In this document: in pieces, positions 2,409-35,008 of the stretch
How the letters are laid out: every line of letters begins with the position of its first letter
Numbering within the stretch: position 1 is the first letter of the stretch
IMG/VR virus record: IMGVR_UViG_3300025030_000293
Coordinates: 1-35,008 of that record
DNA: 35,008 bases
Strand: one strand, 5' to 3'
Origin: a virus
Program-made: the position numbers and the translations under genes
Notes under the pieces: model-generated
What the model saw: the letters and a program-made list of their open reading frames with translations, nothing else
The model's database searches: none
Told to the model about the DNA's origin: nothing

Positions 2409-2771
2409 TTAGAAAGTTCGAGGCTTATTTCGGAACTCATCGTGCATTGTATCCAATACAGTTGCCAACTGATCAGCCACATGCGCAATGCCTTCTGGGG
2501 TGAGAACGACATAGACGGAGTCGAATTCCACAACCTCTGCCAAAGTAACTGTTACTTCGACATACAAACCGCCACCGTACATCACAGAATACGGTTTGTA
2601 TTGGGTGCGATCCGGCATCATTTGTTGCACTGGTAGCCTGAGTTTCAGCTTGGTCGGATCTTTGGTGTCCAGACGTATGTGCGCCGTGGGTGCAAGGATA
2701 ACTTGCTGCTCCGGGAATATTGGATTGATAACCGTGTTGGGGTCATAGGTTAGAGACGGTTCTTTTGACAT
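2409..2771 (-). CDS. Hypothetical protein in replication operon
   Basis: 120 aa. Its ATG overlaps the helicase stop by one base (TAATG arrangement), showing translational coupling. The sequence is soluble and mixed alpha/beta, with GGGLYVEVTVTLAEVVEFDSVYVVLTPE-like strands in the middle and a helical end. No family was recognised. The palindrome AAGTAACTGTTACTT lies inside the gene at 2543-2557. Confidence 0.75.
   Translation of the reverse strand: MSKEPSLTYDPNTVINPIFPEQQVILAPTAHIRLDTKDPTKLKLRLPVQQMMPDRTQYKPYSVMYGGGLYVEVTVTLAEVVEFDSVYVVLTPEGIAHVADQLATVLDTMHDEFRNKPRTF
2543..2557. promoter_or_regulatory. Palindrome AAGTAACTGTTACTT (copy 1 of 4)
   Basis: Perfect 7-bp arms around one central base, inside the hypothetical gene at 2409-2771. 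Identical apart from the central base to copies at 6677, 12978 and 14917. It is probably a site for a dimeric regulator, in the manner of dispersed repressor sites. Confidence 0.55.
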
Positions 2772-5344
2772 TAGATCTCCAGTAAATCCATGACAGGAAT
2801 GTCATCAATTGAGATAAGCTGGCCAAAGATTTCACGCTTGGTTTCTATGAGTTTGTGAACACGCTCGTCCATGGTGTGCCGGGCAACCAGGTAGATGATC
2901 TCTACATTGGACTGCTGGCCAATACGATGTAGTCTGGCTTCGATCTGTCCCTCCTTTCCCGGATTCCACTCGCGCTCCACAAAGATGAGAGTGTCCGCTG
3001 AAAATAAATCAATACCTTCGCCGCCCGCCTGAGAGATAATTGCCACCCTTACTTGTGGATCGTGCAAGAATGCGAATACATTATCGGATCGCTCGTGCTG
3101 TGGGGTGTCACCTACTATGGTGATCACGCCGAAGTGCTTGAGCTTTTCAACCAAGGTGGCTACTACTGCTTTGTGATGGGCAAACAACACAACCTTTTGT
3201 TTGGAGACCAGCACATTCTCGGCCAGCTCAACTGCAGGCCCAACCTTCATGTGACCAATAATCTGCCGCAGTTTAGCAACCAATTCCAACTTGGAAGCCT
3301 TGCGATTTTCCTGCACCTGCCGCCGTGCATCTGTGAGTGCCTCATTGTAATCTCGGGCAAACAGCTTATCGTAGTCCACAGGAATATTTACCCGTGTCAT
3401 AGATGGGAGTTCAGACATGACTTCTTGCTTCGTGCGGCGAAGGAAGTAGGGCGCCAGTTCTTGCTTCAGTTCCTTCAAATGTGAAGCGCCACTGACATCC
3501 CAACCCCACCTGCTTTTATAGGCGCCACAGTAGGTAATGGCATACTTCCAATAAGAATTCCACCTGCCGGGAGATATGATATTCAACTGGGGAAACAATT
3601 CAATGGGACGGTTCAGGAATGGGGTACCGGAAAGCCCAAGGAAATAGGGCGTATTCAAGGACTTGGCTGCGCGTGTGCGCTGAGAGTCCTTGTTGGCGAG
3701 AGCGTGACTCTCATCAAATAAAGACAACTGATAACCACGTGCCCGTATGCTTTCAATTTTACGAGTAAAGATCGCATAAGACATAATAGTAAATTTCGCG
3801 TTGGGTAGGGGTTCAGAGGATGAAGTAACCACTGCGCTATCCTCTCCAATCCAATTATTGATTTCGTCTTGCCACTTATAAGTAACCGAAGCCGGAGAAA
3901 CAATCAAGATACTGTGAAAGCCCCGTTCTTGTATGTAACCCAGAGCCTCGATGGTATTATGAGTGAGTATGGCATGTTCAGTGACATACAAATGATCTTC
4001 ACTATCTACAGAAATACACACACTCGCTACATTTCTTGAGAACTCTACTGACTTCATAGTTCTAGTTGGTCTTGCATGAGAGCCAGGCACATATCTGATC
4101 GCTTTGCGTTCAACCGTGAAGGGCAATACCCATTCAGGAAGGCGCATTCTGATTTGATATTCAACAGGCTTATCTTCTCCTGCTCTATCATAAGTATTTA
4201 CAGATGCCACCCCGCCTAATTCCTCAACCAGTTCCTGAACTCCTAACGCAAGTTTATGGCTGATAGAATGATAAATTACTTTGTTACGAGTTAGAGATAC
4301 AGATCCGCCACCATCCATGAGACCATGTAATAAAGAAACACGTTGGGAGGGTGATGCCAATAAATAAATATCGGGTATGAATTTGTTTGCACTGAGTATA
4401 TCTAATCCAAGATGCTGTATCATACCAATCAAACCGCGAACCCAAAAGCGTGATGCCTTTCCAGTGTATGATTTACTATATGAGCAATCCATTCCTTCTT
4501 GCATCATCTGTGATCTAATTTGATCAACGTCATCTGAGTGTGTGCTGGCTACCACAGAGGACTGAGTGAGATTACCACTTGCAAGCAAGTATCCTAAAGT
4601 ATAGGGAGGAATAGGAAGTGCAACGGTTGCGAACTCAACTGGAGCAGTAAGCATAGGTAGATACAATGCAGTCTTGGATAGGTTCAAGGATTTCTTAGTT
4701 TTAGATTGAATTATACAAGGAAGATTTTTGAGTTGTTCAGTGGTAAGAACTAACTCTTCCCAATGATCCCCGCCCATTCTATAGCGCACAGTCCACAAGT
4801 GCTCAAGCCCGGACTCTACTGAACTATTGTCACTAAAGGTTACACGATATACATCTTTCTTTCCTTGAGGAAAGACACCTGTTACTCTGTGTGGCTGCCC
4901 ATCAGAACCTATTACGTGATCTCCAATTTTTATTTCACCTATCATTCTCCAGCCGTAAGGTGTGAGCACCTGGCTATCAATGGGCTGGAGTTTTCCCAGG
5001 CCCATCTCATCTGCTATGATGGCTCTGCCGTTAGTGTTGTGCAGAAAATCCAATGCCTTTATCTGGAAAGGATACATCTTACTTCTTACCAGATTGGACT
5101 TGGAAAATATTGGATCCTTACCCAGATCCAGTACAGGTTTGTCAATCAGAAACCCATACTCCTTACCGAATTTGACACTCATTTTAGCAGAATATTCAGA
5201 TGCCGGTAGCCACCACAAACGAGCTTCCCCATCAAAGCGGGCATCCGGTAGGGCTTTGATCTTGTTCTTCATACCCATAGAAAAAGGAAAGTGAAACTCG
5301 ATGCGCAACTTTTCCTGGTTATAGCTTATCTGTTTATGATCCAT
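2771..5344 (-). CDS. SNF2-family DNA helicase/ATPase, interrupted by an intein
   Basis: 857 aa from the ATG at 5344; a GTG two codons earlier (5350) is possible, but the AGGGTG site fits the ATG better. Without the intein the host protein is about 512 aa. Helicase motifs in order: motif I DEMGLGK|T (split by the intein), Ia ILIVSPAS, II DESH, III LSGTP, V QAGGEGIDL and VI QIEARLHRIGQ. These are the signature of SNF2-type superfamily 2 ATPases, which translocate on double-stranded DNA. Phage members are found in replication or recombination modules, and here it is the first gene of the minus-strand operon running towards the primase-like gene. Because the P-loop is split, ATPase activity should need protein splicing. 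No HNH or other added domain is seen. Confidence 0.95.
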   Translation of the reverse strand: MDHKQISYNQEKLRIEFHFPFSMGMKNKIKALPDARFDGEARLWWLPASEYSAKMSVKFGKEYGFLIDKPVLDLGKDPIFSKSNLVRSKMYPFQIKALDFLHNTNGRAIIADEMGLGKLQPIDSQVLTPYGWRMIGEIKIGDHVIGSDGQPHRVTGVFPQGKKDVYRVTFSDNSSVESGLEHLWTVRYRMGGDHWEELVLTTEQLKNLPCIIQSKTKKSLNLSKTALYLPMLTAPVEFATVALPIPPYTLGYLLASGNLTQSSVVASTHSDDVDQIRSQMMQEGMDCSYSKSYTGKASRFWVRGLIGMIQHLGLDILSANKFIPDIYLLASPSQRVSLLHGLMDGGGSVSLTRNKVIYHSISHKLALGVQELVEELGGVASVNTYDRAGEDKPVEYQIRMRLPEWVLPFTVERKAIRYVPGSHARPTRTMKSVEFSRNVASVCISVDSEDHLYVTEHAILTHNTIEALGYIQERGFHSILIVSPASVTYKWQDEINNWIGEDSAVVTSSSEPLPNAKFTIMSYAIFTRKIESIRARGYQLSLFDESHALANKDSQRTRAAKSLNTPYFLGLSGTPFLNRPIELFPQLNIISPGRWNSYWKYAITYCGAYKSRWGWDVSGASHLKELKQELAPYFLRRTKQEVMSELPSMTRVNIPVDYDKLFARDYNEALTDARRQVQENRKASKLELVAKLRQIIGHMKVGPAVELAENVLVSKQKVVLFAHHKAVVATLVEKLKHFGVITIVGDTPQHERSDNVFAFLHDPQVRVAIISQAGGEGIDLFSADTLIFVEREWNPGKEGQIEARLHRIGQQSNVEIIYLVARHTMDERVHKLIETKREIFGQLISIDDIPVMDLLEI
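3956..4990 (-). mobile_element. Class 3-type intein with decayed LAGLIDADG endonuclease
   Basis: 345 aa inserted between the Lys and Thr of the SNF2 Walker A motif (MGLGK | T). The N-terminal residue is Leu (LQPIDSQVLTPYGW), not the usual Cys or Ser. The non-contiguous Trp/Cys/Thr set that defines class 3 inteins is present: Trp in EHLWTV (codon 4793-4795), Cys in SVCISVDSEDHLYVT (codon 4016-4018) and Thr in ILTHN just before the terminal His-Asn. The +1 extein residue is Thr. In the middle, two LAGLIDADG-like helices are visible (LGYLLASG and HGLMDGGG), but the position-8 acidic residue is Ser in one and Gly in the other, so the homing endonuclease is probably dead. Confidence 0.9.
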
Positions 5345-5380
5345 GATCACCCTATCAAATTGTCAGGAACTATGAGTTGG

Positions 5381-5418
5381 TTGGGGGAGCTGGGATGGGC
5401 ACAAGGCAACTCCCCCAA
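5381..5418. repeat. 9-bp inverted repeat in the helicase leader
   Basis: TTGGGGGAG at 5381-5389 and CTCCCCCAA at 5410-5418 are perfectly complementary across a 20-base loop. The element lies 37 bases upstream of the helicase ATG, in the expected 5' leader of the minus-strand operon. It could be an mRNA hairpin that shields the leader or attenuates transcription, or a protein-binding site. No U-tract follows on either strand, so it is not a standard terminator. Confidence 0.6.
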
Positions 5419-5517
5419 GACCAGAAAGGAGGGATCGGGACACAGCCGATCACAAAATTATCTTACCACAAAATTTGTCCTCTACATTAAATTCAGATTA
5501 GAGTTCTGGTAGCCATC

Positions 5518-5546
5518 TTGACAAACAATTTCAATTTTGCTATGAT
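5518..5546 (+). promoter_or_regulatory. Near-consensus sigma70-type promoter
   Basis: TTGACA at 5518-5523, exactly 17 bases, then TATGAT at 5541-5546. It has the perfect -35 hexamer and a 5/6 -10 hexamer at optimal spacing, the strongest promoter match in the window. No protein-coding frame begins directly downstream; it points into the structured non-coding segment. Confidence 0.8.
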
Positions 5547-5552
5547 GAAACT

Positions 5553-5809
5553 ATGAATTGCAACGGCAAATTGGCCACCTGATTTGCCCACATTTACTTG
5601 ACACAGCCCAGTTGGTGAGCGACAAACAAGGATGATGCTGGACATCAGAGCCAGCTACCGCCCTATACGAAAAGGCAATTGGTACTCTACGCGGGTAGAG
5701 TAACCAGAGGTGGGCATCATGGGAGGGCACTTGCGCCTCTGTCAATTTTCAAGATTGACAAAAGCCTTAGTAGATTCGGACAAGAAAGTGAAAACTTTCT
5801 TTTATTTTA
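5553..5809 (+). ncRNA. Candidate structured phage RNA, about 250 nt
   Basis: A strong promoter lies directly upstream and a terminator-like hairpin ends the segment; the 5' end is estimated from the -10 box. No reading frame of useful length with a ribosome site is present. Perfect stems visible: GCTGG/CCAGC (5637-5641/5651-5655); TACTCTAC-GCGG-GTAGAGTA (5683-5702); CAGAGG/CCTCTG (5705-5710/5736-5741) with a 25-base loop; TGTCAAT/ATTGACA (5740-5746/5754-5760). A 7-bp pair, TGCCCAC (5585-5591) with GTGGGCA (5710-5716), could form a pseudoknot. TTGACACAG (5598-5606) pairs with CTGTGTCAA (5836-5844), which would close the whole structure if transcription reads past the terminator. I do not recognise a known RNA family. 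It could instead be a long 5' leader of the gene at 5915. Confidence 0.6.
5782..5809 (+). terminator. Rho-independent terminator-like hairpin
   Basis: AAGAAAGT-GAAA-ACTTTCTT is a perfect 8-bp stem with a GAAA tetraloop, followed by TTATTTTA. The stem is A/T-rich, so efficiency may be partial. Confidence 0.6.
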
Positions 5810-5815
5810 CTGAGC

Positions 5816-5833
5816 CGACCATTTCGATGGTCG
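5816..5833 (+). other. UUCG-tetraloop hairpin
   Basis: CGACCAT-TTCG-ATGGTCG is a perfect 7-bp stem with the very stable UUCG loop. It lies between the terminator-like hairpin and the CTGTGTCAA arm at 5836, so it is either the last helix of a longer form of the structured RNA or part of the leader of the gene at 5915. Confidence 0.6.
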
Positions 5834-5862
5834 AACTGTGTCAAAATACAAAAAACAATTTC

Positions 5863-5891
5863 TTCTGATGTAACATTCCTTTAGCTATAGT
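5863..5891 (+). promoter_or_regulatory. Possible promoter for the 5915-6705 gene pair
   Basis: TTCTGA at 5863-5868, 17 bases, then TATAGT at 5886-5891. The -10 is a 5/6 match, the -35 only 3/6. The expected start site falls just before the AGAGAGGAGAG ribosome site of the gene at 5915. Confidence 0.4.
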
Positions 5892-5914
5892 TTGTAGTTA
5901 GAGAGGAGAGCACT

Positions 5915-6442
5915 ATGGATAAGAAGATATCCTGGCTGAGAATAGATTCTGATTTCCTTTTGGTTGTTTATCGGCGTCTGGCGGCGGCTTCTGGTGAGGC
6001 GACTATGGCCGCCTTGAGCCGGGAGATGGAACGTCTTGGTATATACAATCGGCGCACTGGTAAACCTTTTTCACGCCAGGCCTATTACTATGCTTTGGCG
6101 GCGATCCCTGGGGCTTTGCCCCTACTGCGCCGAGGAGTTGGATTGGTGCATGATCGTCCTGTCATCTGTTCCAATCCCCAATATCCCAACATTACTTCCT
6201 GGTTCAAGCGCAAGATGCCGGATATACAAGTCATTGAATATGATCAGATTACCCTGGACGATGCTTACAGGCGAGTCATCTATGGTGCGCCGCCCATTGG
6301 TTGCATGGGTGTGGCGGCGGCGGTGTATTGGATTTACCATGAGCGTAAGCCACTGCGGTTTGACGCTGTTCCGCTGGATGATGGAACTTATTACCTGCGC
6401 AGGATGGTATGGCAAGATCACATACGGCACCAAAAGAACTAA
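5915..6442 (+). CDS. Hypothetical protein, possible N-terminal helix-turn-helix
   Basis: 175 aa with a strong AGAGAGGAGAG site. Residues about 25-65 (ALSREMERLGIYNRRTGKPFSRQAYYYAL) resemble the DNA-binding helix-turn-helix region seen next to serine recombinases, where a helix, the phrase 'R-R-T-G-K-P-F-S' and a second helix occur. The rest (DQITLDDAYRRVIYGAPPIG...) is unrecognised. It forms a two-gene plus-strand island with the HNH gene, against the direction of its neighbours. This may be a self-contained regulatory or homing unit. Function not assigned. Confidence 0.8.
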   Translation: MDKKISWLRIDSDFLLVVYRRLAAASGEATMAALSREMERLGIYNRRTGKPFSRQAYYYALAAIPGALPLLRRGVGLVHDRPVICSNPQYPNITSWFKRKMPDIQVIEYDQITLDDAYRRVIYGAPPIGCMGVAAAVYWIYHERKPLRFDAVPLDDGTYYLRRMVWQDHIRHQKN

Positions 6443-6705
6443 GTCCAGCGGCTCTGCTGGAACTGTATAATTGTACATGCGCCATGTGTTTTGGTAAGGC
6501 TGTTACCATTCACGAGATCGAACCAAAGTCCAAAAGGTCTGCTGATTGGTGGGAATTTGATAATAGGGTACCGCTTTGCGGCTACTGTCACGACCTGGTT
6601 CATCTGGAAGGCACTGCCCGCTGGCATGATCGGTTGCACGAGGCGCGGGCAGTGCTGGTTTCTCTGTACGGGATTGAAGTAACCGTTACTTTACCTCATA
6701 CATAG
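6409..6705 (+). CDS. HNH endonuclease-like protein
   Basis: 98 aa. It overlaps the end of the preceding gene by 34 bases, with an AGGA site inside that gene. Motifs: CAMC at about residues 25-28, IHEIEP at about 34-39 (first His-Glu), DNRVPLCGYCHDLVH at about 51-65 (the Asn and the final His with a second CxxC). This is the zinc-stabilised beta-beta-alpha HNH nuclease fold. Phage HNH proteins act as homing enzymes or assist terminase nicking; here the distance from the terminase favours a free-standing homing enzyme or a partner of the 5915 gene. The last codons contain the palindrome AAGTAACCGTTACTT. Confidence 0.85.
   Translation: MARSHTAPKELSPAALLELYNCTCAMCFGKAVTIHEIEPKSKRSADWWEFDNRVPLCGYCHDLVHLEGTARWHDRLHEARAVLVSLYGIEVTVTLPHT
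6677..6691. promoter_or_regulatory. Palindrome AAGTAACCGTTACTT (copy 2 of 4)
   Basis: Perfect 7-bp arms at the very end of the HNH gene, 14 bases before its stop and close to the end of the converging minus-strand operon. Confidence 0.55.
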
Positions 6706-6706
6706 C

Positions 6707-6823
6707 CTACCATGCCCGAGCAATGGCATCAGCCAGATCAGCTGCGCTGTATGAATGGTACATATAATGTTCGGGTGCAGTGGAAATTGTCTTGCTGAGT
6801 TCTTCCAGTGATTTTGGTTGCAT
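6707..6823 (-). CDS. Small hypothetical protein, 38 aa
   Basis: The ATG at 6823-6821 lies 2 bases after the stop of the DUF932 gene, with an AGAGGGAAG ribosome site in that gene's end. The product starts MQPKSLEELSK and ends ADLADAIARAW, and is probably two short helices. It is the last gene of the minus-strand accessory operon and ends one base from the converging HNH gene stop. Family not recognised; the call rests on spacing, ribosome site and sensible composition. Confidence 0.6.
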   Translation of the reverse strand: MQPKSLEELSKTISTAPEHYMYHSYSAADLADAIARAW

Positions 6824-6825
6824 GG

Positions 6826-7812
6826 TTACTTCCCTCTGATCACATCAAAGGCCAATTGTTTCACCAATGCCCGCTCACCCAACAGGGCAGATGAGAACTG
6901 ACCAGAGCCACGACCTGGTTTCCAATCTTCCAATTCCACTACTGCATTCCACGCACCCCATTGGGTATTGGCCAGCTTCGGTTGCTCGTCATTCCACTTG
7001 AGAAACAATTCTTCAGCTGCTTCCCGGTGCTGCCGCTTGGAATCTTCCAGGTTGGCAAACTCTTCGGACACATCAATGACTGTAAGATCTTCAGGCTTGG
7101 GCGGAGGGGCATAGATTTGTAGCAGTGCCCGTTTGAAATCATCCAGATCGAAGGGTGAAACAGCCATGACACCAAACAGCTGGTTGACTGTTTCCATGCG
7201 CTTGTTCATTTCCAGTGCAATGCTGGCAACCTTTTCCAATCTGAGCATGTTGCCGGTAGTGTGTGCCACATTCATGGTAAGTGTGGCTTGGGCAATACCC
7301 ATGCGCAGGGTGTTGTTACACACCGTGCGGACAGGGGTGTAGTAAATCTTGGTGGCTGATCTGCCCGTCTTCTCATCGTATAGAGTGAAGTATTGGTGTA
7401 TGGTGTCACCTTTGATATCTACCATACCGGCATCCAGAGCAGCGAACATGCGCTCCCCGTTGCCCAGGGCGCCGATGGTTTCAACCGGGTAGATCTGGCT
7501 GAGGTCATTGAAAGTCTGGGCCACGGACAAATTCGTAACCAGCTTGTAATTCTTTCCGACCACATCCAATGGTTGCCAGTGCTTCTCGCCGTTCTGTGGT
7601 TCGCGGATGACTGCCATACGATCTGGCACAGGTATCATGCCATCTTTGGTTTCCGCATAGACCGGAACCAGCCGGGTGTCGTAGGCAATGCCGCTTTCGA
7701 ATGCGGCTTCGACCAGGGTGATCTTGCGCTCTTTGGGAAATACCGTACCCAGATTGTGCCAACCTGGTTGGGCTCTGGCCATAAATTTGTTACCAAATAA
7801 TTCGTGACTCAT
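6826..7812 (-). CDS. DUF932 phage/plasmid-like protein
   Basis: 328 aa. Matches the DUF932 (phage/plasmid-like TIGR03299) pattern: WHNLGTVF near the N-terminus, VGKNYKLVTN at about 85, GALGNGERMFAALD at about 114, YFTLYDEKTGRSATKIYYTPVRTVCNNTLRMG at about 140-170. The family is common in phages and plasmids; its biochemical role is unknown. Length is normal for the family. The ATG lies just after the stop of the 7814-8116 gene and the two are probably coupled. Confidence 0.92.
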   Translation of the reverse strand: MSHELFGNKFMARAQPGWHNLGTVFPKERKITLVEAAFESGIAYDTRLVPVYAETKDGMIPVPDRMAVIREPQNGEKHWQPLDVVGKNYKLVTNLSVAQTFNDLSQIYPVETIGALGNGERMFAALDAGMVDIKGDTIHQYFTLYDEKTGRSATKIYYTPVRTVCNNTLRMGIAQATLTMNVAHTTGNMLRLEKVASIALEMNKRMETVNQLFGVMAVSPFDLDDFKRALLQIYAPPPKPEDLTVIDVSEEFANLEDSKRQHREAAEELFLKWNDEQPKLANTQWGAWNAVVELEDWKPGRGSGQFSSALLGERALVKQLAFDVIRGK

Positions 7813-7813
7813 T

Positions 7814-8116
7814 TCATTTCTCCTTTGAGTTCATCTTTTCGGATTTGGGAGTGATGGTGAATTGCTGATTGAATTCATGTTTCAACACCAGGGTCTCAAA
7901 GCCGTTGTCGAAGTGCATCTTCACCGTTGCAACGTTGATGCGTACTACATTAGCATAGGCCGGTGAGAACAGGTGCTTATACCATTTACCAAGTTCAGGT
8001 TCGATCATCTCATTCTCCTTGCTCTCTTCAAGATACGAGCTGAGCTGGGTGGCTCGTTCAACCGACACACCATGTAGGGTCAAAGAGAAGTTCGTGTGTG
8101 ATTTTGTAGTTGTCAT
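7814..8116 (-). CDS. Hypothetical protein, 100 aa
   Basis: Starts MTTTKSHTNF and ends with a charged tail (KSEKMNSKEK). The middle reads GKWYKHLFSPAYANVVRINVATVKMHFDNGFETLVL, which looks beta-rich. It is upstream of and coupled to the DUF932 gene. Its start codon lies within the promoter of the divergent gene at 8161. Family not recognised. Confidence 0.7.
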   Translation of the reverse strand: MTTTKSHTNFSLTLHGVSVERATQLSSYLEESKENEMIEPELGKWYKHLFSPAYANVVRINVATVKMHFDNGFETLVLKHEFNQQFTITPKSEKMNSKEK

Positions 8117-23943: not shown

Positions 23944-26900
23944 ATGGCCAAAAAATTCTGGGAACAGCCCTGGTATCTTGAGTATCTCGAAGATCTCAAG
24001 CGCAAACAAACCAACAAAAAAGATACCAATGAGCTGCTGAAAACCACGATCAATTCCACTGTCAAAAATCCCAATGTTCAGATGGTTCCCAGGCGCGTTG
24101 CCAACATCTCACCAGCGCGGACTTACATACAGGCTAAACAAGCCGAGATTGAGCGGATGGTTGGGCCAACCAAGGTGCTACCACGCCCATCTTCAGTGAC
24201 AGCCATGCCGGATCGGGTGGTAGAAAAGCTGCCACCTGTTTCACCTTACACTTATTTACCACAGGCGGCGCCACCACCCAACCGACCTGATCTTGAAACA
24301 GTACAACCAGCGGGCGCCAGGCGAGTGAAGCCCGCCCCGCCGCCCAAACCAAAACAGACATTCAAAGCAACGCCCGACACAAAAGTCGGGCAAGAAGTCT
24401 ATTTATCTTATGATAAGAATGCCAGGCTGACGTTCATTACTGCGCGTCCGACTGACATAAAGCTATTCAATTACAATGGAACAATGGTTCCAGTTTCCAA
24501 AAATGACAGCGGGAAATGGGCATTAGATAAGGAAATAACCCAACTGGGTGTCACGCTCGACAACATGATCCCCATGGTGTACACGCCGGATCTGTTGGAA
24601 ACCCTGAATTCTACCAAGACTGCGGCGGATTTATTGAAGCCGTTGACGTTGGATGGCATGATCAAGCTGGGCGAGGCGTTGTATTATGATCCGATTGTTA
24701 ACCAAATAACAGCTCGGCCTACCCAGACACAGATATTCTGGACTCCAGATCACAAGGAATTGACGTATGAGCGTACCGCCACCGATGATAAAGGAATGGT
24801 GGTAACTAATGATCCGGTTGAATTTGATGTACAGTCTAGTAAATTCTTACAGGAAACACTTACCAAGGAGCATGTTGAGTTCGATGCGTTTACTAATCTG
24901 GATGTAGCAGGCAATCCAACCCGCGCTTCAGATATTCGATTTGGGCTGGGCACAGTCAGAACCGAAGATTTACAAGCTATGCACGGGCTGGATTACACCC
25001 TGAATAAACAGACAGGCGAAACTGTGAATTTGCTGGATGAACAGGGAAATGTATATCCATTCTACCTGACGCCGGAAACCCCGATTGCTAATTTTCCCAT
25101 TCAGATGAAGAACTTTGAAACCGCTCTGCGGAATTCAAAATTATTCCAAACCCTGGTTGTACCCGTCTGGGCCAAATTTGATCCAGTCAAGGCCGCGCCC
25201 TATGTTGATGGTGCCATTGCCGCAATTTCTGGTTTTTATGCTTTGTTTGATCAGACATCCATAGTGCCGAAACAATCTACATTGTTTTCGTCCGAGTCTC
25301 AAACGGTACGGCGCAGTGGTTTGGGCAATACCGTTCCAGCATTCTTATCCAATTTGCTTACGCAATTTCTTGGTCGGCCACTAGTATCGGCAACCCGTTT
25401 CCTTGCATTTCCCATCTCTCTATTTGAAAAAGCCACAGCATCCGGAATGTGGAAATTCGCCCAGTCCATACAAGATCAACTAGAGATGGCGGTAAAGGAC
25501 AAACGTGCCGTTGTCGATGACCAATTACAGAGGGCTATGTATCTGGAATTGGAGCGTCCGGGCATCTCATTATCTCCAACCCAATTGCTGCAGGACACTT
25601 ATGAATACACTGAGAAGTTTGATGTTGGAGATCGAGGTGTAAGTACCCAACTGGAAATGGCGGGTCTGGGTTCTAACGATGCACTGGTCACATACGTGAA
25701 CCGCATGAATTCTAATGTTGCTGCCGGGCAGTCCTTGATGGATGGCGCAATCCGCAAACAATACTCGGGATTGACAGGAGAAGCTGTTGATGAATTTGCC
25801 GAGGGCATGTACCGGTACTACGTGTGGGGTCTGGATTGGGCGGCGATCAACAATTGGATAGATGGCAGATACGAACAAAAACCCATCCAGGCCGGGGTTG
25901 ACAAGATTTTGGCTGGAGATGTACCTGTTACTTCAGATGAGTTTCACTTTCTGTGGCAGTTCATGGCCTATAACACGGTTACTCCCACGGCAGACGTGCG
26001 CAGCTTTATGCCCAAGTTCAATATTCAACCGGACACTGGAGCAAATTATTTATTCTTCCGGCACGCGGCTGATGTTAGCTTGGCCAAAGGTCGTCCACTT
26101 ACACTGGATGAACTATACGAAGAATCCATAACTTGGTTGGCTGGTTATTATCAAAATCCCATTTCTACGAAAGAGTTCCGGGAACTCATGCTGCAGCGGT
26201 CACAGGCCAGACATGATCGGGCGCTGACGCTCAATCGCACTGCCAAGAGCTACAGGGTATTGGGTGAAGGAGCACCTGATGAAGCTACCCAGCAGTATTA
26301 TTTTGGGTTAGCTGATGAAATGATAAAGGCTGCCCAGGATCTATTAGTGGCCACTTATCCAATGGATCGCAAGGCCGGGAACATAGATCCATTTTCGGCC
26401 TACACCTGGGATGCAAAACCGGAAAGATTGCAGCAAGTTTATCAGAATGTGGCTTTGGCCGAATTACAGCTTGGCCGCCCGCCGACACGCCAAGAGATAA
26501 CAGACATAGCTTCCATGTCGGTGGATATTGTTATCGAGATGGGCGGCGAGATGGTCTTCGATGCTATGGAGTTATTGGGCGTATTCAAGGTGGGGAAGAT
26601 TGCTATAAACGCCGCACAAAAGGGAATTACCAAGACGCTGGTGAAATCTGCCAAGGGTATATCTGTTCTCAATGCGCTTGCGGCAGTCCAAGATGAAATC
26701 TCCAACATGGCTTTGATACGCCACATGAAAGGCAGAGCTTTGGCTTCTCAGGCATTCAAGCAGAGTGAAGTCATGGCCGAACTTACATCGGACATATTAC
26801 GCTCCAACCCACAGACTAAGGAAGAATTTGTGGCCTTGTTTGAGCGGGTTGCCAATGATATTGTGAGGATCAAGAGCGCCGGTACCAAAACAGAGGCAGC

Positions 26901-29900
26901 GGAAATCATTGCTTCCATCATGCCAAATCGACCAACCATTTTGTCGGCGCACACCTTACAAGAAGCGGCAGATTTGCTGACGGAGACAATTGATCCAAAG
27001 AGGTGGCCCACAATAGCTGGTGAAGTATGGGATGAAAACTGGAGTCACATGATCGAGCGGGCCGCACACGATTACAACAAAGTGTGGAAACTAGACCCGA
27101 GTGATGCCAGCTTGCAGACGCTCAGAACCAATAATATCACAGCCAAAGCCACCCAGAATTTCTTTAGTTGGGCCGGTCAGAGCCGAATGGCAACTGAACT
27201 TGGATCACAGTTCCGTAAGACATTCAGTGATGCCAACCGCGCTTGGACTAATTCAGTGATTTTCAGTGACACCTGGTGGGCTAAGCTGGGGTTTACTGGC
27301 AAGGAATCCACGGCGGGAATTTACAAATGGCGCCAGATATTAGAGGGAGTTTACAAGCTCAATCAAACCTTTATGAACGCATGGGTGTGGGCTACACTGG
27401 CGCGGCGTCCGGCCTGGATGTTGTACAATTTCATTGATAATACTTTCCGGTTTTTTGTAGGCGGAGCTGGAGATATACGGGACATCTTTTTCCTGATGCA
27501 GACCGGAGTAGGACAGAAGATTGCCAGCAATGTCAAAATCCCGGCGCATGTTGCTTCCGATCTGAGTGCACTTACCTTCAGGTATGTAGTCGAGCCACTG
27601 GGAGAAGGCATTTCGCAGAAGAAATATCTGCCCAGCATTCTCAATTTACGGGACAATCCGCTGGGATTTTTACAGCACTATCGGGTGAATTATTTGGCCA
27701 TGACAGATGGGAAGAATGCACTGACCAAAGCATACACGGTTTTCAGCGCATTCCCGGTGTCGGTGAAGAGTTTAGCTAATGCTATAGAGTATGGCACGCG
27801 CATTCGCATGTGGTACAAGCTCTATACCAATAATGTCAACGTGCTCAACAAGACTATTCTGACCAATTTGTTAGATGGAGCAGAGGCGATTGGTGAAAGT
27901 CCACGCGTCCTGGGTTTGAAGGAACGGTTACTTGCCACCGGCATGAGTGAACTGGATGCCAACAAGTGGGTACAGCATGTAAAAGACATGTGGCTGACCT
28001 CTGGTTCTAACTCTCAACGCTTCGAGCGGTCGCTCCAATTGCTAGCTACACCGGGTGAGTATCTCAACGAACGGTTATTCCTGCCGGAGATTATTACCAA
28101 AGCAGCCTGGTTTGATGAAACGCTACAACGCCCACTGATTACTGCAGTGTTGGATGAACTGCAGAAATTCGTTACCACCCAGGCAGATGCCGGGCTGACC
28201 AAGCTCACGAAGGTGCAAGTGGATCAGTTCTTCGACCGGGTTATTGCCATGTTCGATGCAGAATCCAATGCCAAGCTGAGCACCATTTGGAACCAACAGG
28301 CCCAGATTTTGCGCAACTTCGACATAGATTCAGGGCGCCAGGAATTGAAGGGTACTCCATATTACCCGGAAGCCACCACCAAGAGTAAGGACTTTCCGCT
28401 GGTGACTGATTCTGGAAATGATGCGGTCAAGGCCATTCCAAGGGATGCTACCAAACTAACCAACACTCAGCGGCGTTTGGCCAAGAAAGCTGTAAAAGAG
28501 AACCGGGTTGTCATACCCAACGATGCAGATGAGAATCTGGTCAAAGCTGTAAATACCATTCGGGATCGGTCTGATGCGATTGGAACTAAACCGCAACCAC
28601 TTACGGATGAACAAATCCGAGCAGTAGAGAATGATCTAAAGGATATATTACCGGCAGATGTACCGACCAATGCCTTTGAAATGGAAGTGTTAGACCGCGT
28701 CATTCAAAAGAATATACCGCGCGGCATTTATCTGGAAGCAGGAAAGCGCCGGGCAATTGCCGCAAAGAACTTTGGGGATGTGTTTGGCCAGCCGGAATTC
28801 ACACAAAGCCGGGTATACAGCCGGTTGGAACGCCCAGACCGTGATCTGATTGCGGCTCATGGTAGAAACTTGGATGATGCCATACGTCATGTGGCATCAT
28901 CCATAAACTCATTTTGGATTGAGGTTTGGCCGGGGCCGCGACAATTGGATGCAGCCGGAAACATTATTTTCACGGCGCGTACCAGTAAATCATGGGAACA
29001 GGCTTTCAACCTAATAGCGCGGCAGTGGAACAGCCAGGTATTCATGTATGAGGAGTTGTTGGACGATGTCAGGCGTGGAAATTTCACCCTGCTGTCATCC
29101 TACTCAGTAAAAGATATGTTGGACAAGGCAGGCATCCAACCGATGTTCGACGCCAAAGGCAGAGTGGTCAGGATCAGGATGCACAATCCTGTAACCAACG
29201 AGTGGAAGACTACCGACTCTGTGGTAGCGGTTTCCCAATTCAAGAAGATCACAGGCGTAGAAAACCAGCGGATATACACCGGCAGCATTCAGGAACTTGG
29301 CAAGGGTGTAATACCAGACAGCAAGAAAGCCTTTACTATCGAGGCCAAAATTTTGCCAACACCGTTTCCATCTTATGATGAAATGGTGAACAGTACTCCG
29401 CGTCTGGCTTTGGCAATCAAAGAAGGACGCTTGGCAGATGCCAATCGAATTTTGGCTGGTGAATTCCGTTATCACATGTTCTATGAAAAGGCTGGACAGC
29501 TTGTTCCAGCCGACAGTATGTTATTGAACCGCATCTGGAAAGAAATCGGCGGAGATTCTAAGAAACAGTGGAAGACGCTGCAGGATGTACCGCCTGATAT
29601 TACCCACAAAGTATTGGATGACTGGGCACAAACTCATCACGGCTATCAGTTAGGCAAGATGGTAAAAGGTTTGCAGGATGATCTGACGGTTGTGTTCCAA
29701 AAGCAATATAGCTGGACTGAAGCTGGTGCACGGGACTACTTCAAGCTGTGGGATAGGGTTATGGAGAATGTATCCCGATTGTTGTCGGATACACTTGGGC
29801 GGCCCATAACCAAGGATGAAACCTGGGCACATGTGTACTTCGGCTTCTACAAAATTGATCCGACTGTAGATGGTAAGGCCATGCGCGGGTTGGATGGTCG

Positions 29901-32900
29901 TCAAGTATTCCAATCTAATCTAAATGATTTCATCGAGCGCAGCATGACCAACAATATGACCGGTGCAGAGATCCTGGAACGCATGAAATCCCTGGGATTT
30001 TCTGAGGGTGAACTGAAATGGAATGGAATGTACCAATGGCTGGTCAAAAACAAAGACGAAGCCATCACCCAAAGCAGTCTGAAGAAGTTGGTATTTGAGC
30101 GCGAACGCTATCTTGAAGCTCAAACTCAGGCGGGTGGTGTGTGGAGTGTCACGCTAAAAGATGGAAAAGGAAACCAATTAGTCCAGGCGACCGGAGCGTT
30201 GTCACTGGATCCAGACACAAATTTGTTTCGCTTCAACCTGACAAAGGTAGAGGGGGATGTAGATGAGTATTCATTACAGCGGCTGCAGCGTTGGGCAAGA
30301 GATGAAGAGGCCACCCACCTGGTCATGCCGGATGGGGTTGTACATGATTTGCGCAAGGTTCCGCCCTCTCTAAAAGCTACTCGCAGATCAGATTTTTCTT
30401 TCCTGGGCAGCACCGATTTTGTAAAGAACGAACTGGATCGACATTCAGCGATCATCAAAGCTTTTGCCGGGTCCAATCCAACCACATCTCTACATGAGAT
30501 GTTTCACGCTGTGGAAGATTATTTGCCGGACGCAGCGAAAAAGGTATTGGACGATTACGCTTCCGAGACCTTACTGCGGATGCAGGTAAGCAATGATCCA
30601 GCCTACAAGTTGTACAAAGACTTGGATCCGGCAGTCGCCCGCAGTGAGATTACAGCCCGAGCATGGGAAAAATATGTAATCACTGAGATGGCGCCGAACA
30701 GCGAGGTGGGGCACATCTTCAAGGCTATCAAGAATTACTTGGTGAATTTCTATCGCAGCATGGGTGATTATTTTGGCGGGGTATATCTGACGCCCGAAGT
30801 GCGCAAGGTATTCGATCAGATGGTGGGAGACGGCTGGAAGCAGGCTCAGGCTGACAAATTACCAAAGCCGCGTTCTCCCGGCCCCAAACCCAAAGTACCG
30901 GCAAAGCCAATTACATCTGAGGACGCACTCAAGGCTGCGCGGAAAGCCAAAGAAACGGTTACTTCCAAGCCGGTTATCAAGAAGAAGGATCCGGCAACCA
31001 AGGTGGCGGATCTGGTGGCAGTGGATGATATTGACCGGGCGCAGGGAAGGTGGCTGCAAAAGGGTACGTTCTATCCTGTACCGCGCAAGCGGAGATTCCT
31101 GAAAGGCTACACCGCCCAGGATGTAATTGATCACGAGATCAAAGAACTTCGTGGCGATTTGAAGATTAACCCCGACATAGATATGTCCTCTGTCAGCGCA
31201 CAACACACAATCTGGGTGGCATTTGATGAGGGTGTGGCAGTCAAGCATTACAAATTCAGCGATCCGGCCCTGAAGAACCTGACATCTACACAGTATCCAT
31301 ACTTCCGGGTATTGGCTGTGGATGGAAACGGCCACGCTCTAATTGAATACTCAGCAAAAGCACCCAAGGGAGCAGAGCCGTTGATGCAGGAGATCCACGC
31401 ACACCAATCTATTCTGGAATTGATGAACGGCCCGGAGAATGAACTAAAGACAGCCATGCGCGAACTGTTGGATATTTATACTCAGGATGATGTGGCCCGG
31501 TTGGTTAGTCAATTTGAGCCCATTGTCACCAAGATTGAAGACAAGCTAATTGCCAGTAATTACACCATGTTGGCCAAGGATCTCACACCAGCCGAGAGGG
31601 AGGCATTATCCTTCCTGGCCAACAACTTCTTACCACCTTCTATTGCTAGCACATACCCGCAAAAACCAGTGCAACGTTTCGCTCAGCAGGTTTTGGATGC
31701 CAACGGAAACTACATCAGCTTTGGGGTGGTCGGCAACATTGACATTGATGATATTATATATGTCAACGACTTTGCTACCTTCTTCGACCGGGTAGCCAAT
31801 GCAGTTTGGGAGCCAATCAGTAAAGGAGAATTGCCTAAAGTCCAGCGCATCAGCGAGGATGTGTTGTCTATTTTGGAGCAGCGCGGGTTCGACCCGGTAG
31901 TTTTAGCTGGTAACATATCATCGGATTACATACACAATGCTTTGATTTCCGGGCGCAAGCTGACACCCATACCTGTACCTGATCGCTCATCCTTTATGGA
32001 CTTTGCCGCGCGTTCCAAGGTCAAAACCCCGGATGGCCGACCACTTCCGGTTTACCATGCTTCACGCTTCAACTTTGTTGAGTTCAATGCTGCCAACGAT
32101 ATGGGCCACCATTTTGGTACAGTCTATGCTGCTTTGGATAGAGCGCATTGGCAACCTAGTTGGCAGTTGCACGCCTACTGGCTGAACATCGAAAATCCAA
32201 TCAAGCTCACCGATAATGGCGGCTGGGGCTACCTGGGTGTGGCCAATCAGTTGGCAGAAATTGATTTGATTTCCGCTACTGAAGCACTGGCTTTGAAGAA
32301 TGAAGCAGCTATGGCCGATAATATTATGGAAGGGCTTATCCAAACCTTGGATGAGACTACTCCAATTACCATGGTGCAGGCCGACAAATTGATGAATGAG
32401 TTGTATACCTCCATGCCAATTCTGAAAGACTATGGCAACTTCGATGCCAAAGATCTGATGGTCAGTTGGAACTTGAATGCCGGGTTATATGCCAATTCAA
32501 AGACAGTTTACAGCCCGCTAAATATCCACCGCCGTGTAGGATCTTCTCGGGTGGTGGCGGGGATGAAGAAATCTTATGCCATTGACGGCATCGAATATGT
32601 CAATGCCTTTGAAAATCGCGGTTCCACATCCTACATGGCCTTCTATAAAAATCAGATCAAGCGGGTAGACAATGTTGGAACTTACAATCCAAAGGTAGAT
32701 CACGTAAGGTTCCAGATGTTGAGCGACCTGATTGATGACTCTGCCGAGCATGTTGAGAACAGTCAACGGGCATTGAAAACCTGGACAAAATCAGTGTCAG
32801 GGATGTTGGATAATGTAGATAGTTTGTTCCTTGATGCCCGCACTGGATTTATGAATGCCAACGTGCTGGTTTCTTATCCCGATGCGCTCAGCAAACCCAA

Positions 32901-35008
32901 TACTGCCTACTTGATTGGCAACGGATTTGATTATATTGTCCGAGAAATGGGAGATGACGCGGCGGATCATTACCTGCGTAACTTGGCATCTGCTCTTCGC
33001 GGGGCGGGATTGGATGAGGCAGACATCTTCCACATGGGAGATGCCAGGTTTGTCATTCAAATGGACGATGCCCGCAAGCTGGATGATGTGCTGGAAGCAG
33101 TAGCCAATGCTCCCACCGTGCGTGTGTATGATGATGTCGGTGAACTGTGGGACATAGATTTGGATATTAGCCATTCTGGGGTGGGATCAAAGAATGATAT
33201 TCCTGAACAATTCCAATTGGCACAGGAAGCATCTGAGAAGTTGCGATCTGATTCCTATGTAGATTGGCTACGGCACAGTGGTGAAGAGCGTACCGAATTC
33301 CGCAACGAATGGGAAGCATTGGATGATGCGGATTTGAATGGCGCCGAGATTGCCACTCACAAGTACATTCGTCCTGCCGATCCGATTTTCCAGGAAGTGC
33401 CGTACCGGCAGTGGTACTACCACAAGGCCGAGCGTGAAATTGAGAAAATGGATTTCAAGAGTACTTCGACTGCCAGGCTACGCAGTGTATTGCCAAAGTT
33501 CGTCAGTGCTGATGAGATGAAATGGTCTGGATTGGATGATTTCCTGTCTGAAAATAAAAACGTAACCAAACAAGAGGTGTTGGATTTCCTTCGTGAGAAT
33601 CAGATCGAAGTCAACAAGGTTACACCTGAGATGAGACGATCAGCCATGAGTGGCGATCAATCTTTATTCCAGAAAACCGATGCCGAGGATCTGGTTGCTA
33701 AAGCAAAACAGCCCGACATCCAACCAGAAATAGATGAGGCATGGCGGGCATTTGCTCAGTCACCCATCTTCACACACGGCAGCCAGCAAGTCAGCCTGGC
33801 AGATTTGTGGGGAGTATTATTTGGGAATGAGCGTAAATTGCTGGAAGCTGGATCAGATGGCTTCGCCAATATTGCCATCAAGCTGGCAGATGACTTCCAA
33901 ATGTCGGGTTTGACTGAGCAAGCAGAAGTCATGCGGCTGCTTTCCGGGTTGGCCAAGGATTTCTCCAAATATGTAGAGGGAAGCGTCATCAAACTGGACT
34001 CTTTGGTTCCGCCACCACTGGCTTTGTGGCGCACCAACCCACAGATACGACAGTGGATCTCCAATCTTTATGGCGTGGGATCTCAAATAGCAGCAGGCAA
34101 GCGCACCCTGCGCATGTGGAAGGATGAGTTCGGGCGTAAGATTGATGACTCTCCGCTGGCCAAGTTGGACATCAATCCAGAGGCGAGCAAGGTATTGAAC
34201 GATGTTGCCAAAGAAGGCGCACTGCTCAAATCACAGATGAATGATGTGGCCAATTATGGTGGTCGCATGGCCGGGCATTATATTTCACCGGCCAACGGCG
34301 CCGTTACCAAGACCAACTTCAACATGATCGACTACACTGATTTCACCGTGCTGGATCAATTTATGAAAGACCTGATCCCGTTCTGGATGTACCCGGCCAA
34401 GTCAGTGCCATTTTGGATAAAGACGCTTGTTCAGCATCCAGAGATTGTGGCGTTCTATTACAAATACCAACGCTGGTCAAAAACTTCAGCACTGCAGGCT
34501 CATGCCACGACCAGCCGAGGTGAAGTTCTGCCGTCACTGAAAGGTTACGTACCCATTCTGCCGGGTCTGTGGTTCAACCCACTGGCGCCGCTGTTGTTCC
34601 GTTATGCTTTCCCGCGCGTGGATAACATACCAGAAGAAGATCCAGAGCTAAGTCCATTGCAGTCTGTGGCCAAGTTCTTCTTGGATGATGCGCCCATATT
34701 CGGCATCAATATCTCCCCGGTGATGTCGGCTGTACTGCAGACCTTCTATGATCCTTACTACCCCAAGACCAATCTGGCTTATGATATAGCCAAAGCGGTT
34801 ATTCCCATTGAATTTATTCCACCTTTTGCCGAGCGTTGGATTATGGCCCAAACGCGGAAAGTGGCCAGCGGCTGGAAGAATATACCCGAACGGTTTTCCG
34901 AAGAAGTTAGCTGGAAAGACTACCTGATCGAGCGTGAAATCTTGATCAATGCCCTGGATCGCATGAAAGATATTACCAGCCAGGTAGAAAAAGAAGCCAT
35001 TGCCAAAG
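23944..35008 (+). CDS. Giant polyvalent virion protein (partial; peptidase + ADP-ribosyltransferase-like + GGDEF-like)
   Basis: One uninterrupted frame from an ATG with AGAGG upstream to the window end: 3,688 complete codons and still open. Residues about 1-130 are Pro/Lys-rich. The next 2,000 residues are mainly helical and unrecognised. HEMFH at 2184-2188, followed by EITARAWEKYV and a YLTPEVRKVFDQM helix, is the zincin metallopeptidase pattern of phage polyvalent proteins. Residues about 2690-2915 (TPDGRPLPVYHA, HHFGT, WLNIENPIKL, EYVNAFENRG, NQIKRVDNVGTYNP) match the ADP-ribosyltransferase domain of such proteins. Residues about 2955-3045 resemble a GGDEF domain. MKWSGLDDFL...TKQEVLDFLRENQIEV (about 3175-3220) is another segment I know from these proteins. 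The end (FWMYPAKSVPFWIKTL) is membrane-like. By family such proteins are packaged and injected with the DNA. Confidence 0.9.
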   Translation, partial: MAKKFWEQPWYLEYLEDLKRKQTNKKDTNELLKTTINSTVKNPNVQMVPRRVANISPARTYIQAKQAEIERMVGPTKVLPRPSSVTAMPDRVVEKLPPVSPYTYLPQAAPPPNRPDLETVQPAGARRVKPAPPPKPKQTFKATPDTKVGQEVYLSYDKNARLTFITARPTDIKLFNYNGTMVPVSKNDSGKWALDKEITQLGVTLDNMIPMVYTPDLLETLNSTKTAADLLKPLTLDGMIKLGEALYYDPIVNQITARPTQTQIFWTPDHKELTYERTATDDKGMVVTNDPVEFDVQSSKFLQETLTKEHVEFDAFTNLDVAGNPTRASDIRFGLGTVRTEDLQAMHGLDYTLNKQTGETVNLLDEQGNVYPFYLTPETPIANFPIQMKNFETALRNSKLFQTLVVPVWAKFDPVKAAPYVDGAIAAISGFYALFDQTSIVPKQSTLFSSESQTVRRSGLGNTVPAFLSNLLTQFLGRPLVSATRFLAFPISLFEKATASGMWKFAQSIQDQLEMAVKDKRAVVDDQLQRAMYLELERPGISLSPTQLLQDTYEYTEKFDVGDRGVSTQLEMAGLGSNDALVTYVNRMNSNVAAGQSLMDGAIRKQYSGLTGEAVDEFAEGMYRYYVWGLDWAAINNWIDGRYEQKPIQAGVDKILAGDVPVTSDEFHFLWQFMAYNTVTPTADVRSFMPKFNIQPDTGANYLFFRHAADVSLAKGRPLTLDELYEESITWLAGYYQNPISTKEFRELMLQRSQARHDRALTLNRTAKSYRVLGEGAPDEATQQYYFGLADEMIKAAQDLLVATYPMDRKAGNIDPFSAYTWDAKPERLQQVYQNVALAELQLGRPPTRQEITDIASMSVDIVIEMGGEMVFDAMELLGVFKVGKIAINAAQKGITKTLVKSAKGISVLNALAAVQDEISNMALIRHMKGRALASQAFKQSEVMAELTSDILRSNPQTKEEFVALFERVANDIVRIKSAGTKTEAAEIIASIMPNRPTILSAHTLQEAADLLTETIDPKRWPTIAGEVWDENWSHMIERAAHDYNKVWKLDPSDASLQTLRTNNITAKATQNFFSWAGQSRMATELGSQFRKTFSDANRAWTNSVIFSDTWWAKLGFTGKESTAGIYKWRQILEGVYKLNQTFMNAWVWATLARRPAWMLYNFIDNTFRFFVGGAGDIRDIFFLMQTGVGQKIASNVKIPAHVASDLSALTFRYVVEPLGEGISQKKYLPSILNLRDNPLGFLQHYRVNYLAMTDGKNALTKAYTVFSAFPVSVKSLANAIEYGTRIRMWYKLYTNNVNVLNKTILTNLLDGAEAIGESPRVLGLKERLLATGMSELDANKWVQHVKDMWLTSGSNSQRFERSLQLLATPGEYLNERLFLPEIITKAAWFDETLQRPLITAVLDELQKFVTTQADAGLTKLTKVQVDQFFDRVIAMFDAESNAKLSTIWNQQAQILRNFDIDSGRQELKGTPYYPEATTKSKDFPLVTDSGNDAVKAIPRDATKLTNTQRRLAKKAVKENRVVIPNDADENLVKAVNTIRDRSDAIGTKPQPLTDEQIRAVENDLKDILPADVPTNAFEMEVLDRVIQKNIPRGIYLEAGKRRAIAAKNFGDVFGQPEFTQSRVYSRLERPDRDLIAAHGRNLDDAIRHVASSINSFWIEVWPGPRQLDAAGNIIFTARTSKSWEQAFNLIARQWNSQVFMYEELLDDVRRGNFTLLSSYSVKDMLDKAGIQPMFDAKGRVVRIRMHNPVTNEWKTTDSVVAVSQFKKITGVENQRIYTGSIQELGKGVIPDSKKAFTIEAKILPTPFPSYDEMVNSTPRLALAIKEGRLADANRILAGEFRYHMFYEKAGQLVPADSMLLNRIWKEIGGDSKKQWKTLQDVPPDITHKVLDDWAQTHHGYQLGKMVKGLQDDLTVVFQKQYSWTEAGARDYFKLWDRVMENVSRLLSDTLGRPITKDETWAHVYFGFYKIDPTVDGKAMRGLDGRQVFQSNLNDFIERSMTNNMTGAEILERMKSLGFSEGELKWNGMYQWLVKNKDEAITQSSLKKLVFERERYLEAQTQAGGVWSVTLKDGKGNQLVQATGALSLDPDTNLFRFNLTKVEGDVDEYSLQRLQRWARDEEATHLVMPDGVVHDLRKVPPSLKATRRSDFSFLGSTDFVKNELDRHSAIIKAFAGSNPTTSLHEMFHAVEDYLPDAAKKVLDDYASETLLRMQVSNDPAYKLYKDLDPAVARSEITARAWEKYVITEMAPNSEVGHIFKAIKNYLVNFYRSMGDYFGGVYLTPEVRKVFDQMVGDGWKQAQADKLPKPRSPGPKPKVPAKPITSEDALKAARKAKETVTSKPVIKKKDPATKVADLVAVDDIDRAQGRWLQKGTFYPVPRKRRFLKGYTAQDVIDHEIKELRGDLKINPDIDMSSVSAQHTIWVAFDEGVAVKHYKFSDPALKNLTSTQYPYFRVLAVDGNGHALIEYSAKAPKGAEPLMQEIHAHQSILELMNGPENELKTAMRELLDIYTQDDVARLVSQFEPIVTKIEDKLIASNYTMLAKDLTPAEREALSFLANNFLPPSIASTYPQKPVQRFAQQVLDANGNYISFGVVGNIDIDDIIYVNDFATFFDRVANAVWEPISKGELPKVQRISEDVLSILEQRGFDPVVLAGNISSDYIHNALISGRKLTPIPVPDRSSFMDFAARSKVKTPDGRPLPVYHASRFNFVEFNAANDMGHHFGTVYAALDRAHWQPSWQLHAYWLNIENPIKLTDNGGWGYLGVANQLAEIDLISATEALALKNEAAMADNIMEGLIQTLDETTPITMVQADKLMNELYTSMPILKDYGNFDAKDLMVSWNLNAGLYANSKTVYSPLNIHRRVGSSRVVAGMKKSYAIDGIEYVNAFENRGSTSYMAFYKNQIKRVDNVGTYNPKVDHVRFQMLSDLIDDSAEHVENSQRALKTWTKSVSGMLDNVDSLFLDARTGFMNANVLVSYPDALSKPNTAYLIGNGFDYIVREMGDDAADHYLRNLASALRGAGLDEADIFHMGDARFVIQMDDARKLDDVLEAVANAPTVRVYDDVGELWDIDLDISHSGVGSKNDIPEQFQLAQEASEKLRSDSYVDWLRHSGEERTEFRNEWEALDDADLNGAEIATHKYIRPADPIFQEVPYRQWYYHKAEREIEKMDFKSTSTARLRSVLPKFVSADEMKWSGLDDFLSENKNVTKQEVLDFLRENQIEVNKVTPEMRRSAMSGDQSLFQKTDAEDLVAKAKQPDIQPEIDEAWRAFAQSPIFTHGSQQVSLADLWGVLFGNERKLLEAGSDGFANIAIKLADDFQMSGLTEQAEVMRLLSGLAKDFSKYVEGSVIKLDSLVPPPLALWRTNPQIRQWISNLYGVGSQIAAGKRTLRMWKDEFGRKIDDSPLAKLDINPEASKVLNDVAKEGALLKSQMNDVANYGGRMAGHYISPANGAVTKTNFNMIDYTDFTVLDQFMKDLIPFWMYPAKSVPFWIKTLVQHPEIVAFYYKYQRWSKTSALQAHATTSRGEVLPSLKGYVPILPGLWFNPLAPLLFRYAFPRVDNIPEEDPELSPLQSVAKFFLDDAPIFGINISPVMSAVLQTFYDPYYPKTNLAYDIAKAVIPIEFIPPFAERWIMAQTRKVASGWKNIPERFSEEVSWKDYLIEREILINALDRMKDITSQVEKEAIAK

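What the first reader, a model, noticed from the sequence alone, without database searches (positions are those of the whole stretch)
5553..5809. Promoter-driven, highly structured non-coding RNA in a phage early region
A TTGACA-17-TATGAT promoter leads into about 250 bases that contain at least four perfect local stems, a terminator-like hairpin, a UUCG hairpin just beyond, a 9-bp long-range pair closing the region (5598-5606/5836-5844) and a possible pseudoknot (5585-5591 with 5710-5716). There is no useful reading frame. I do not recognise the layout as tmRNA, 6S, GOLLD, HEARO or a group I intron. It may be a new phage RNA family or a long structured leader of the 5915 gene.
Basis: partly seen in the sequence, partly recalled or inferred. 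Interest (0 to 1): 0.75.

Follow-up and report, generated by a model that had tools for sequence, protein, structure and literature searches.

The report
New structured RNA in uncultured phages
Two distantly related uncultured phages, probably infecting Chloroflexota bacteria, carry the same previously uncatalogued folded RNA just upstream of a small two-gene operon, and it is better conserved than the protein that follows it, so it is very probably a functional RNA whose job is not yet known.

Summary
The window (IMG/VR record, 35 kb) has a TTGACA-17-TATGAT promoter and about 290 nt of strongly folding sequence between a minus-strand helicase gene and the plus-strand 5915-HNH gene pair. A second phage record (G006, 66 kb; terminase 71% identical) has the same promoter geometry, the same gene order and a homologous RNA in the same place. 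A covariance model built from the window alone finds it at 96.9 bits (E 4e-25), against 62.7 bits for a sequence-only model, so structure adds 34 bits. Six hairpins recur between invariant boxes; by a hand alignment, 13 base pairs changed on both sides and none broke. The RNA runs to at least 5842, not 5809. Rfam has no match, and no third copy was found. Most likely it is the 5' leader of the 5915-HNH transcript, acting in cis; a processed trans-acting RNA is the main rival. A real new RNA family of two members; function not shown.

The parts
5518..5546 (+). promoter TTGACA-17-TATGAT; predicted start near 5553
   Evidence: same spacing in G006 (TTGACT-17-TACTAT, L017 1860-1888); distance from -10 start to the UGCCC box 44 and 41 nt
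5579..5590 (+). conserved box 0 CUGAyyUGCCCA; 5' strand of the possible pseudoknot with 5712-5716
   Evidence: read; UGCCC/GGGCA invariant in both, P about 0.05 by shuffling, no covariation
5611..5623 (+). hairpin P1b GUUG/CGAC (G006 GCAG/CUGC)
   Evidence: 2 of 4 pairs changed on both sides
5626..5634 (+). invariant box A ACAAGGAUG
5637..5655 (+). hairpin P2b GCUGG/CCAGC (G006 UCUGG/CCAGA)
5657..5680 (+). conserved box B ACCGCCC...GAA.AGGCAAUU
5679..5707 (+). hairpin P3 (UUGGU/ACCAG plus a 7-bp inner stem found only in the window)
   Evidence: 2 pairs changed on both sides
5712..5735 (+). box C GGGCAUCAUGGGnGGGCACUUGCG, the longest nearly invariant stretch (23 of 24)
   Evidence: used as the search pattern
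5740..5760 (+). hairpin P4 UGUCAAU/AUUGACA (G006 UUUCAUC/GAUGAAA)
   Evidence: 3 pairs changed on both sides in a hand alignment
5760..5779 (+). conserved box D AAAAGCCUnAGUAnAUUCGG
   Evidence: 4 pairs changed on both sides by hand, 3 by the model-fitted alignment
5816..5833 (+). hairpin P6 CGACCAU-UUCG-AUGGUCG (G006 CGACCUU-UGGC-AAGGUCG)
   Evidence: 1 pair changed on both sides
5837..5842 (+). box F UGUGUC, last clearly conserved box of the RNA
5915..6442 (+). 175-aa protein with a likely helix-turn-helix N-terminus; no family found
   Evidence: homologue L017 2304-2825, 32-33% identity
6409..6705 (+). 98-aa HNH protein overlapping 5915; 55% identical homologue in G006, also overlapping

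Best explanation
A phage-encoded structured RNA of about 290 nt, made from its own promoter as the 5' leader of a short two-gene operon (5915, then an HNH protein). Shown: it is conserved at the same place in two phages, with compensatory base-pair changes and invariant boxes between the hairpins, on the plus strand. Inferred: transcription starts near 5553 and runs on into 5915. Proposed: the folded leader controls expression of 5915-HNH in cis, by binding a partner (the HTH-like 5915 protein itself, a host factor or a small molecule) that changes access to the ribosome-binding site. That last step rests on position only.
For: Same order in both phages: helicase(-), promoter(+), RNA(+), 5915 homologue(+), overlapping HNH(+), convergent DUF932(-). 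Promoter spacing and its distance to the RNA are conserved. The RNA-5915-HNH block is a plus-strand island among minus-strand genes, so it needs its own promoter. No terminator-like site between the RNA and 5915 in the window. Window-only CM 96.9 bits against 62.7 for sequence only on G006; 96.9% of cells paired and 10 pairs changed on both sides, against 24.7-48.4% paired and 0-1 such pairs when helices are slid. Hairpins that sit at the ribosome-binding site in both phages are compatible with translational control.
Against: The RNA core (about 78% DNA identity) is better conserved than protein 5915 (33%), which fits a partner other than 5915 equally well. The hairpins at the ribosome-binding site are not significant (z -1.5 and -1.2) and the linker to 5915 differs in length (72 and about 109 nt). 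One scan flags a terminator-like site at P6 in G006. Only two family members are known. No expression data.
Confidence: 0.48

Rival explanations
1. A stand-alone, trans-acting phage RNA, processed from or terminated before the 5915 mRNA, that binds a phage or host protein, or assembles with itself as other ornate phage RNAs do.
For: Own promoter; size; six conserved hairpins separated by invariant single-stranded boxes; conservation above that of the downstream protein.
Against: No conserved terminator or obvious 3' end; always found directly upstream of 5915 (two cases); no partner identified.
Confidence: 0.32
2. A DNA element, such as a replication origin or a protein-binding region with hairpins in single-stranded DNA, between divergent early genes.
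For: Both strands fold about equally well; it lies beside a helicase gene; an AGATTAGAGTT stretch upstream of the promoter is also conserved.
Against: Wobble pairs in the compared helices are G-U on the plus strand (P1b, P3, P2), which would be A-C mismatches on the other strand; a plus-strand promoter at a conserved distance; no skew change at this place.
Confidence: 0.09
3. Leader-peptide control: the region is conserved because of a short upstream frame beginning AUGGGnGGGCACUUGCGyCUy (MGGHLRL).
For: The three differences in the first seven codons are all silent; a Shine-Dalgarno-like GAGGUG precedes it in the window.
Against: The frame is 49 codons in the window and 10 in G006, and differs after codon 7; conservation extends upstream of the AUG and far past the stop; three silent changes are expected by chance with P about 0.04; G006 lacks a good ribosome-binding site there.
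Confidence: 0.06
4. No function as RNA: chance folding plus ordinary conservation of intergenic regulatory DNA.
For: Folding z is not unique in this window and is about zero for the G006 copy folded alone.
Against: 34 bits gained from structure taken from the window alone; 13 double changes by hand and 10 on a model-fitted alignment, with no broken hairpin pair by hand.
Confidence: 0.05

Closest known systems
GOLLD and ROOL, large ornate RNAs often carried by phages (PMC12286853; Rfam)
   Same: Phage-encoded RNA with many hairpins and possible pseudoknots
   Different: No Rfam match; about 290 nt here (GOLLD and ROOL are much larger, from general knowledge); it precedes a protein operon; no sequence or structural correspondence found
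Riboswitch-like and protein-binding structured 5' leaders
   Same: Promoter, structured RNA, then the regulated gene in the same direction; conservation of the RNA above that of the downstream protein
   Different: No recognisable terminator or significant ribosome-binding-site switch; no ligand; no known family matches
HEARO / omega RNA
   Same: Structured RNA upstream of an HNH-encoding gene
   Different: The HNH protein is 98 aa, separated by another gene, with no RuvC or IscB signature; no Rfam match

Membership tests
Any Rfam 15 family (including GOLLD, ROOL, OLE, HEARO, tmRNA, 6S, RNase P, group I and II introns) | Covariance-model match at the gathering score | tested here: not met
   with E up to 10 only chance snoRNA-like and small hits
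tmRNA / tRNA | tRNA-like domain | tested here: not met
   ARAGORN found none
Structured RNA family (in general) | Compensatory changes in homologues | tested here: met
   only two distinct members
Riboswitch or cis-regulatory leader | Lies in the 5' UTR of the regulated gene, same strand, no terminator between | tested here: met
   transcription itself not observed; one weak terminator-like call at P6 in G006
Riboswitch or cis-regulatory leader | Expression platform (terminator/antiterminator or ribosome-binding-site switch) | tested here: inconclusive
   hairpins at the ribosome-binding site, z -1.5 and -1.2
Riboswitch or cis-regulatory leader | Ligand or protein dependence | not testable with these tools
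   needs binding and reporter assays
HEARO / IscB omega RNA | Adjacent IscB-type nuclease (RuvC plus HNH) | tested here: not met
   only a small HNH protein and a protein of no known family follow
Retron | Adjacent reverse transcriptase gene | tested here: not met
   neither gene downstream matches one

The most novel reading that the evidence does not exclude
A new class of pseudoknotted phage RNA that acts in trans, its nearly invariant box C (GGGCAUCAUGGGnGGGCACUUGCG) serving as a hub that pairs with the 5' UGCCC box and the CCGCCC box to make a compact fold that binds a conserved host or phage machine, or assembles with itself.
Probability: 0.2. Interest if true: 0.75.

Novelty: new variant of a known kind. 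Interest (0 to 1): 0.52.

Why it matters
Phage RNAs with strong structure and invariant unpaired boxes are few, and several turned out to have unusual biology. This one has a fixed genomic partner (an operon of an HTH-like protein and an HNH protein), occurs in phages that probably infect Chloroflexota, which have few studied phages, and comes with a consensus and a search pattern that others can use to find more members.

Tried and rejected
Homologues of the RNA by blastn in phages and plasmids, with the window or G006 copy: none. Box-C and gapped-box patterns: only G006 is real in viral contigs, none in genome contigs. Model R2 in about 950 Chloroflexota-related genomes: one weak hit (20.5 bits, half the model deleted, 65% GC), judged chance given the number searched. 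5915 homologues by protein search: none beyond G006. Helicase-alignment scan: G006 only. Fold of 5915 from two sequences: pLDDT 52, no usable structural match. Near-identical contigs of the same phage all end outside 4614-7889, so they say nothing about the RNA. Long-range pairings between invariant boxes (UGCCC/GGGCA, AGGC/GCCU, AGUA/UACU) are each compatible but not significant (P 0.05 to 0.12). Minus-strand ORFs over the RNA show no convincing shared protein.

Full report
What the window is. The window is a 35,008-base virus record of IMG/VR, a tailed-phage fragment: primase-like and SNF2 helicase genes on the minus strand to the left, terminase and large structural genes on the plus strand to the right. 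Near-identical contigs of the same phage exist, but all of them end outside 4614-7889 and so miss the RNA. In bacterial and archaeal genomes, the only relatives of its terminase that were found (28-32% identity) lie in Chloroflexota assemblies (Dehalococcoidia, Anaerolineae), so the host is probably of that phylum (inference).

The observation. The stretch 5585-5860 folds with z -4.9. On its own this would be weak: the minus strand reaches z -4.4, and several other 250-nt tiles of this window reach similar values.

The homologue. An alignment of two terminases reached a 66-kb record, IMGVR_UViG_3300012964_000004 (L012, handle G006), whose terminase is 71% identical. It has the helicase at 28703-30232 (62-66% identity, no intein) and a 5915 homologue at about 30903-31421. 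The intergenic stretch between them (L017 1640-2303) holds an RNA that aligns with the window's. Box patterns taken from this alignment find only this record in viral contigs.

Evidence that it is an RNA. A covariance model made from the window sequence and its own fold alone (R1) finds the G006 copy in 308 kb of related and unrelated loci at 96.9 bits, E 3.7e-25. The same window sequence without structure (R3) gives 62.7 bits. The 34-bit difference is support for the fold that does not depend on an alignment made by hand, although the helices written into R1 were chosen after both copies had been seen. On the model-fitted alignment 96.9% of cells pair and 10 pairs changed on both sides; sliding the 3' strands by 1-3 columns gives 24.7-48.4% and 0-1 (the alignment leans towards the structure, and there are only two distinct rows). 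A hand alignment of six hairpins gives 13 double changes and no broken pair; those helices were chosen by hand. Shuffling each segment between the boxes shows that hairpins of the observed length have single probabilities of 0.005-0.15 in G006, with a product near 10^-9 (segments chosen by hand). Against this, the G006 copy folded alone is no more stable than shuffles, so the case rests on conservation, not on energy. Wobble pairs are G-U on the plus strand.

Anatomy. In order: promoter; box 0 CUGAyyUGCCCA; P1b; box A ACAAGGAUG; P2b; box B ACCGCCC..GAA.AGGCAAUU; P3; box C GGGCAUCAUGGGnGGGCACUUGCG; P4; box D AAAAGCCUnAGUAnAUUCGG; P5; UACU; P6; UGUGUC. The distance from the start of the -10 hexamer to the UGCCC box is 44 nt in the window and 41 in G006. 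The helix of box A with box C (AUGR/UCAU) and the pairings UGCCC/GGGCA, AGGC/GCCU and AGUA/UACU are possible in both but carry no double change and are not significant alone. The closing pair 5598-5606/5836-5844 has no counterpart in G006. The RNA core is 78% identical in DNA, while protein 5915 is 33% identical.

What it does. The RNA, 5915 and the overlapping HNH gene are a plus-strand island between minus-strand genes in both phages, so one promoter in front of the RNA is the simplest source of all three. No terminator separates the RNA from 5915 in the window; in G006 one weak site is called at P6. That makes a 5' leader the most likely form, and control of the operon in cis the most likely role; the expression platform is not shown. 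A separate trans-acting RNA is the main rival, favoured by conservation above that of the protein. A DNA element, a leader peptide and chance are less likely, for the reasons given under the rivals.

Known families. No Rfam 15 family matches either copy, ARAGORN finds no tRNA or tmRNA, and the downstream genes are not IscB-like and not a reverse transcriptase. Open-access papers on large ornate phage RNAs were searched for context; none was found that describes this RNA, but most subscription papers are not held. It is a new family of two known members, of the general kind of phage structured RNA or leader.

Noticed in passing
window 2771-5350 (-): The SNF2 helicase is interrupted by an intein with Hint and LAGLIDADG domains; the homologue in G006 (L017 83-1636) has none. 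A related intein sits in an unrelated 3,207-aa phage ORF in L008.
   Followed up: partly
window 23944-35007 (+), continuing in L009 to 9568: One open reading frame of at least 3,688 aa runs off the window and on in a near-identical contig, to about 4,380 aa in all.
   Followed up: partly
window about 5495-5505; L017 about 1800-1826: AGATTAGAGTT is conserved upstream of the RNA promoter in both phages; in G006 it lies in a TTAGAGTTAGATTAGAGTT repeat, possibly an operator or iteron.
   Followed up: no
L017 2209-2219 and 2268-2278; window 5859-5869: A CUUCUCUGAUA-like element just after the RNA, repeated before the ribosome-binding site in G006, can pair with the purine-rich ribosome-binding region in both phages.
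   Followed up: partly
window 5915-6442: Protein 5915 has a recombinase-like HTH at its N-terminus and a conserved C-terminal motif RVxYGxPxIxxMxxAxxVYWxYHxRxP; no family or fold match.
   Followed up: partly
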